Below, one piece after another: positions 29,807-29,913 of a stretch of DNA of 60,742 nt. Position numbers and translations under genes: made by a program. The stretch is from positions 1 to 60,742 of the IMG/VR virus record IMGVR_UViG_3300035698_003187; one strand, 5' to 3'. Positions within the stretch are counted from its first letter, which is position 1. Every line of letters begins with the position of its first letter. The notes under the pieces were generated by a model. It saw nothing but the letters and a program-made list of their open reading frames with translations. It was not told the DNA's origin and searched no databases. This DNA is from a virus.

Positions 29807-29834
29807 TTGACACTCTCGGATACGATGGTAGTAT
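29807..29834 (+). promoter_or_regulatory. Consensus sigma70 promoter of the tRNA-Met gene
   Basis: TTGACA (29807-29812), a 16-base spacer, TAGTAT (29829-29834). The expected start site falls at or next to the mature tRNA 5' end at 29840. Confidence 0.8.
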
Positions 29835-29839
29835 GTGAC

Positions 29840-29913
29840 CGCGAGGTAGAGCAGTCTGGTAGCTCGATAGGTTCATACCCTGTAGGTCGCTGGTTCAAAT
29901 CCAGCTCTCGCTA
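29840..29913 (+). tRNA. Initiator-like tRNA-Met (CAU)
   Basis: Acceptor CGCGAGG/TCTCGCT leaves C1-U72 unpaired, then TA, D arm GAGC-AGTCTGGTA-GCTC with an A11-U24 pair, anticodon arm ATAGG-TTCATAC-CCTGT with anticodon CAT, variable AGGTC, and T arm GCTGG-TTCAAAT-CCAGC; A73. The mismatched 1-72 pair, A11-U24 and total length of 74 are marks of bacterial initiator tRNA; only two of the three G-C pairs of the anticodon stem are kept. CCA is not encoded. It has its own consensus promoter. Confidence 0.85.

What the first reader, a model, noticed from the sequence alone, without database searches (positions are those of the whole stretch)
29807..29913. Phage-encoded initiator-like tRNA-Met behind a consensus promoter
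The tRNA at 29840-29913 has anticodon CAT, an unpaired C1-U72, an A11-U24 pair and the initiator length of 74, with TTGACA-16-TAGTAT placed so that transcription starts at the tRNA. Phage tRNAs are usually elongators; an initiator type would change start-site use or compensate for host initiator loss. Several genes here start with GTG or TTG, which may be relevant. The anticodon stem keeps two of three G-C pairs.
Basis: partly seen in the sequence, partly recalled or inferred. Interest (0 to 1): 0.72.

Follow-up and report, generated by a model that had tools for sequence, protein, structure and literature searches.

The report
Phage initiator tRNA with altered loop
This bacterial virus carries its own working-looking copy of the tRNA that starts every protein, and at the spot where bacterial toxins cut that tRNA it has a change that bacteria almost never have but many different viruses do, which suggests a spare that the host cannot cut.

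Summary
29840-29913 is a complete initiator tRNA(fMet): 58/74 identical to E. coli metZ without gaps, 86.7 bits against an initiator model (E. coli initiator 100.8, elongator Met 59.1, Ile2 36.4), with C1xU72, A11-U24, G30-C40, G31-C39. The promoter's placing is beyond chance (such a site lies that close upstream of 0.016% of window positions). Phage initiator tRNAs are not rare, so that part is a known kind.

In 84,980 species genomes the same core with this loop occurs 3 times, twice in proviruses; it occurs in 20 viral contigs (42 with a second, looser pattern), including Pseudomonas phage PaMx74. With one free-arm pattern, position 38 or 39 is changed in 22 of 60 distinct phage initiators, but in about 5 of 326 cellular genomes, four of those in phage or prophage DNA. 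Pair 30-40, gripped by the ribosome, is kept in 58/60. A38|C39 is the bond VapC toxins cut in tRNA(fMet).

Best explanation: a functional back-up initiator, probably resistant to initiator-cutting nucleases. That function is inferred and untested; dosage alone and relaxed constraint are the main rivals.

The parts
29807..29812 (+). -35 element TTGACA
   Evidence: placing tested
29829..29834 (+). -10 element TAGTAT (TG before it); predicted start of transcription at about 29841, i.e. at the tRNA
29840..29913 (+). initiator tRNA(fMet), anticodon CAU, CCA not encoded
29840..29840 (+). C1, unpaired with U72 (29912): feature for formylation
29850..29850 (+). A11, pairs with U24 (29864)
29872..29878 (+). 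anticodon loop UUCAUAC: U32 (29872), anticodon 29874-29876, C38 (29878); cellular initiators have CUCAUAA
29878..29879 (+). nucleotides 38|39, the bond that enteric VapC cuts in tRNA(fMet) (A38|C39 there, C38|C39 here)
   Evidence: cut site from PMC4105405; sequence

Best explanation
A functional, phage-encoded initiator tRNA, transcribed from its own sigma-70-type promoter almost at its first nucleotide. It is charged by host MetRS, formylated by host Fmt and used at the P site in place of, or beside, the host initiator. Its loop change C32->U, A38->C removes the A38|C39 dinucleotide that VapC-type toxins cut in tRNA(fMet), so translation of phage genes can start even if the host initiator is destroyed during infection. 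Shown: initiator anatomy, promoter placing, near absence of this loop from cells, and concentration of phage changes at 38/39. Inferred: expression, formylation, initiation and nuclease resistance.
For: Initiator model 86.7 bits v 59.1 for elongator Met and 36.4 for Ile2; formylation determinants 1x72, G2-C71, C3-G70, A11-U24 (listed in PMC7949028) all present. Promoter placing. Loop UUCAUAC with the same core: 3 hits in 84,980 species, two of which are IMG/VR proviruses (phage genes), against 20 viral contigs and 26 with a looser pattern (42 in all), among them PaMx74. Same pattern with free anticodon arm: 38 or 39 changed in 22/60 distinct interior phage initiators; cells 5 of about 326 matching genomes, four of these in phage or prophage DNA; Fisher p about 2e-15. 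Changes fall in many tRNA clusters (21 of 43 at 90% identity). Pair 30-40, contacted by 16S A1339 (PMC11497404), is kept in 58/60. Enteric VapC cuts between A38 and C39 (PMC4105405). Coliphages phi92, phAPEC8, AMO3598 and JohannJBalmer changed 32, 38 and 39, while E. coli metZ has C32/A38/C39. Phage tRNAs with loop changes that evade anticodon nucleases were proposed by van den Berg et al. (PMC10264068).
Against: No nuclease assay, no host known, no evidence that the host has such a VapC. VapC's tolerance of C38 is unknown here. About 63% of phage initiators keep A38|C39. The pair 31-39 is not among those contacted by 16S A1339/G1338, so drift could change it. The nearest relative found (TerL 63%) has no tRNA, so the gene is accessory. 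The other tRNAs and tRNA-like stretches nearby look odd or decayed.
Confidence: 0.42

Rival explanations
1. Functional initiator kept for dosage only: it raises initiator supply in infection, and the loop change is neutral.
For: All initiator determinants and a promoter are present; most phage initiators keep the standard loop.
Against: Does not explain why changes gather at 38/39 in phages and are nearly absent in cells.
Confidence: 0.27
2. Relaxed constraint: the host initiator does the work, the phage copy drifts, and positions not gripped by the ribosome (31-39, 32, 38) change first.
For: 30-40 and 29-41 are read by 16S rRNA and 31-39 is not, which would give the same profile; neighbouring tRNAs look degenerate; a related phage has no tRNA.
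Against: The changed 31-39 positions mostly stay paired, A37 is kept in 59/60, the promoter is intact, and the same double change U32+C38 recurs in many tRNA backgrounds.
Confidence: 0.22
3. It changes start-codon choice in favour of phage genes (GTG/TTG starts).
For: One of the three G-C pairs is missing and some phage genes start with GTG or TTG; stem changes can affect start-codon discrimination.
Against: Anticodon is the normal CAU; A29-U41 is ordinary in cells; two thirds of counted genes start with ATG.
Confidence: 0.05
4. Attachment-site copy of a host tRNA left by integration.
For: Many viral contigs carry an initiator gene close to a contig end, as expected for integration at that gene (positions).
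Against: Whole tRNA with its own promoter, a loop type almost absent from cells, and no integrase among the roughly 30 larger proteins scanned with PHROGs or Pfam; smaller proteins were not scanned.
Confidence: 0.03
5. Elongator Met or Ile2 tRNA misread as an initiator.
For: The CAT anticodon is shared by all three.
Against: Model scores, 1x72 and A11-U24.
Confidence: 0.01

Closest known systems
Bacterial initiator tRNA(fMet), E. coli metZ/W/V
   Same: 58/74 identical without gaps; 1x72 mismatch, A11-U24, G30-C40, G31-C39, CAU, A37
   Different: U32/C38 loop, A29-U41, U72 instead of A72, CCA not encoded
tRNA-fMet of Pseudomonas phage PaMx74 (Pamexvirus) and of Bradleyvirinae phages QDWS359 and DoCa5
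   Same: Phage-encoded initiator; PaMx74 has the same UUCAUAC loop, QDWS359 and DoCa5 have U32
   Different: In PaMx74 and QDWS359 it lies directly behind terL; here it lies 7 kb from terL among genes of unknown function; D-loop one base shorter there
Anticodon-nuclease-resistant phage tRNAs (van den Berg et al. 2023, PMC10264068)
   Same: Loop changes at or near the cut site of a VapC-type toxin
   Different: That work stated that phages generally avoid encoding tRNA-fMet where VapC-LT2 targets it; here initiators themselves are encoded and changed

Membership tests
Bacterial initiator tRNA(fMet) | No Watson-Crick pair at 1-72 | tested here: met
   C1xU72
Bacterial initiator tRNA(fMet) | A11-U24 (purine 11) | tested here: met
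Bacterial initiator tRNA(fMet) | G-C pairs 29-41, 30-40, 31-39 | tested here: inconclusive
   two of three; A29-U41 is common in natural initiators
Bacterial initiator tRNA(fMet) | High score against an initiator model | tested here: met
   86.7 bits; E. coli elongator Met 59.1, Ile2 36.4; no elongator model was built for the reverse test
Bacterial initiator tRNA(fMet) | Formylated and enters the P site | not testable with these tools
   needs biochemistry
Anticodon-nuclease-resistant phage tRNA | Change at the cut site relative to cellular tRNAs | tested here: met
   A38->C
Anticodon-nuclease-resistant phage tRNA | Change relative to the phage's own host tRNA | not tested
   host of the window unknown
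Anticodon-nuclease-resistant phage tRNA | Measured resistance to cleavage | not testable with these tools
   needs a cleavage assay
tRNA-Ile2 / elongator tRNA-Met | Paired 1-72, pyrimidine 11 - purine 24 | tested here: not met

The most novel reading that the evidence does not exclude
Phages widely encode uncuttable initiator tRNAs: start-of-translation back-ups in which the nuclease site 38|39 is rewritten while the ribosome-gripped pair 30-40 is preserved, implying that destruction of the initiator tRNA is a common bacterial anti-phage defence.
Probability: 0.35. Interest if true: 0.8.

Novelty: new variant of a known kind. Interest (0 to 1): 0.55.

Why it matters
Why phages carry initiator tRNAs is unexplained, and the published survey read here held that phages generally avoid tRNA-fMet where it is a toxin target. 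If phage initiators are altered precisely at the toxin's cut site, they become markers of initiator-cutting immunity, and the idea can be tested at once with cultured phages such as JohannJBalmer on E. coli K-12.

Tried and rejected
Close relatives through the portal protein: none in the viral collection. The ParB-methyltransferase brought 80 loci; of the eight tested only L124 is a relative by terminase (TerL 63%), and it has no tRNA. 52 of those loci hold no tRNA near the gene. Attachment-site origin: no integrase seen. Defence genes beside the tRNA: no PADLOC hit. Winther and Gerdes 2011 and Winther 2016 are not held, so mutational data on VapC specificity could not be read. Joint occurrence of changes at 38 and 39 in the viral sample was too rare to test for exclusivity.

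Full report
What the window is. It is an IMG/VR virus record of 60,742 bases with a 127-base direct repeat at its ends, so probably a complete circular assembly. Terminase, portal, head morphogenesis, major head, tape measure and tail proteins are present. The large terminase subunit is about 50% identical to Pseudomonas phages such as PaMx11 and M6 and the portal about 42% to related phages. No host could be assigned.

The tRNA. ARAGORN and Rfam agree on 29840-29913, anticodon CAT. Aligned with the E. coli K-12 genes taken from the annotated genome, it is 58/74 identical to the initiator metZ without gaps, while elongator and Ile2 need many gaps. A covariance model built from 22 standard initiators that do not include the window or its loop type gives the window 86.7 bits, E. 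coli initiators 100.8, elongator Met 59.1 and Ile2 36.4. The determinants of formylation named in PMC7949028, a 1x72 mismatch, G2-C71, C3-G70 and A11-U24, are all there. C1xU72 rather than C1xA72 occurs in other viral initiators, for example L018, L030, L045 and L083. The missing G29-C41 pair (A29-U41) is common in natural initiators.

The promoter. TTGACA-16-TAGTAT with TG before the -10 ends 5 bases before the tRNA. Sites of this strength lie at such a distance upstream of only 20 of 121,364 positions on both strands. The other two tRNAs of the window lack one.

Phage initiators are common. Some of these lie at contig ends and may be host genes. So possession of an initiator is not new.

The loop. 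In the window nucleotides 32-38 read UUCAUAC, where E. coli and nearly all cellular initiators seen here read CUCAUAA. A scan of 84,980 bacterial and archaeal species for the initiator core with this loop gives three hits. Two are the same sequences as IMG/VR records (L207 = L224, L208 = L225) and lie among phage genes. The third is a 7-kb Coriobacteriales contig (L209/L236) whose genome holds a standard initiator elsewhere. The same pattern gives 20 viral contigs; a pattern with a free D-loop length gives 26, 42 different contigs together, including the isolate PaMx74 of P. aeruginosa.

A fair comparison. One pattern, with D-arm and T-arm fixed and the anticodon arm free, was used on phages and cells. 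In 120 viral stretches, taking distinct sequences at least 1 kb inside the locus, position 38 is not A in 7 of 60, position 39 is not C in 16 of 60, and at least one is changed in 22 of 60; pair 30-40 stays G-C in 58, A37 in 59. Cells: 82 of 129 Actinomycetota genomes match, all standard except the Coriobacteriales contig; 48 of 199 Bacillota match, all standard except a phage contig; in 398 Pseudomonadota, of which about half carry a matching initiator (147 of 299 with a slightly stricter pattern), position 38 is changed in two and 39 in one, all three among phage genes. At genome level this is 22/60 against about 5/326, p about 2e-15; the Pseudomonadota denominator is scaled, not counted. 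The changed phage tRNAs are not one cluster: 21 of 43 clusters at 90% identity contain one. Limits: only three phyla were sampled for position 39, the viral rows are the first 120 of the scan, phyla are not matched between the two sets, two of the three cellular samples were centred on genomes picked because they hold a variant, and relatedness is only roughly removed.

Isolates with known hosts. PaMx74 has U32, C38 and U39; QDWS359, VBv52 and DoCa5 have U32; phi92, phAPEC8, AMO3598 and JohannJBalmer have U32, U38 and G39; phiAS5, Aeh1, Wakanda, S-PM2, S-CRM01 and GMA2 keep the loop but have G or A at 39; phiCbK, CcrPW, Myrna, pf16, Pan5 and others are standard. E. coli itself is C32/A38/C39.

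What it means. Enteric VapC cuts tRNA(fMet) at the single bond A38|C39 (PMC4105405); other papers read here describe tRNA(fMet) as a repeated VapC target. The ribosome's A1339 and G1338 grip pairs 30-40 and 29-41, not 31-39 (PMC11497404). Phage initiators thus vary at the cut site and keep the gripped pair 30-40. This fits evasion of initiator-cutting nucleases, an idea put forward for phage tRNAs in general (PMC10264068). It fits almost as well a relaxed copy that drifts wherever the ribosome does not look; retained pairing, the conserved A37, the promoter and the recurrence of the same double change speak against pure drift. I put the full account (functional and nuclease-resistant) at 0.42, functional but without evasion at 0.27, drift at 0.22.

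Verdict. The finding is real, the tRNA is an initiator, and its existence in a phage is a known kind. The loop variant, nearly absent from cells and recurrent in phages, is the new part. Its function is untested.

Noticed in passing
window 27808-27880 (+): tRNA called Ser(UGA) but without the long variable arm of tRNA-Ser, with A1xA72, C37 and C73; an odd or decayed tRNA.
   Followed up: partly
window 30228-30296 (+): Short tRNA (69 nt) with a 6-base anticodon loop UCUAAC; the likely anticodon is CUA, i.e. a possible amber suppressor. Only 5 of 66 counted genes end in TAG.
   Followed up: partly
window 27494-27558 and 27655-27719 (+): Two weak tRNA-like stretches (18.7 and 8.8 bits with the initiator model), the first with a possible paired acceptor and a good T arm but no proper D arm; possibly remains of a tRNA array.
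   Followed up: no
L236 (Coriobacteriales contig) 972-1536: The only candidate cellular U32/C38 initiator lies 41 bases from a divergent PemK/MazF-like toxin gene, near nitrogenase-like genes. Possibly a toxin with a resistant tRNA beside it.
   Followed up: partly
L204, L205, L314, L315: In PaMx74, QDWS359, VBv52 and DoCa5 the initiator tRNA follows a G+C-rich hairpin; in PaMx74 and QDWS359 this lies just behind terL.
   Followed up: no
L258 (phage Donnerlittchen): Initiator-like tRNA with C at position 33 (loop CCCAUAA), where U33 is nearly universal.
   Followed up: no
window 29727-29746: Inverted repeat ATTGTTCC-ACAT-GGAACAAT behind the gene upstream of the tRNA; could be a terminator or a protein-binding site.
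   Followed up: no
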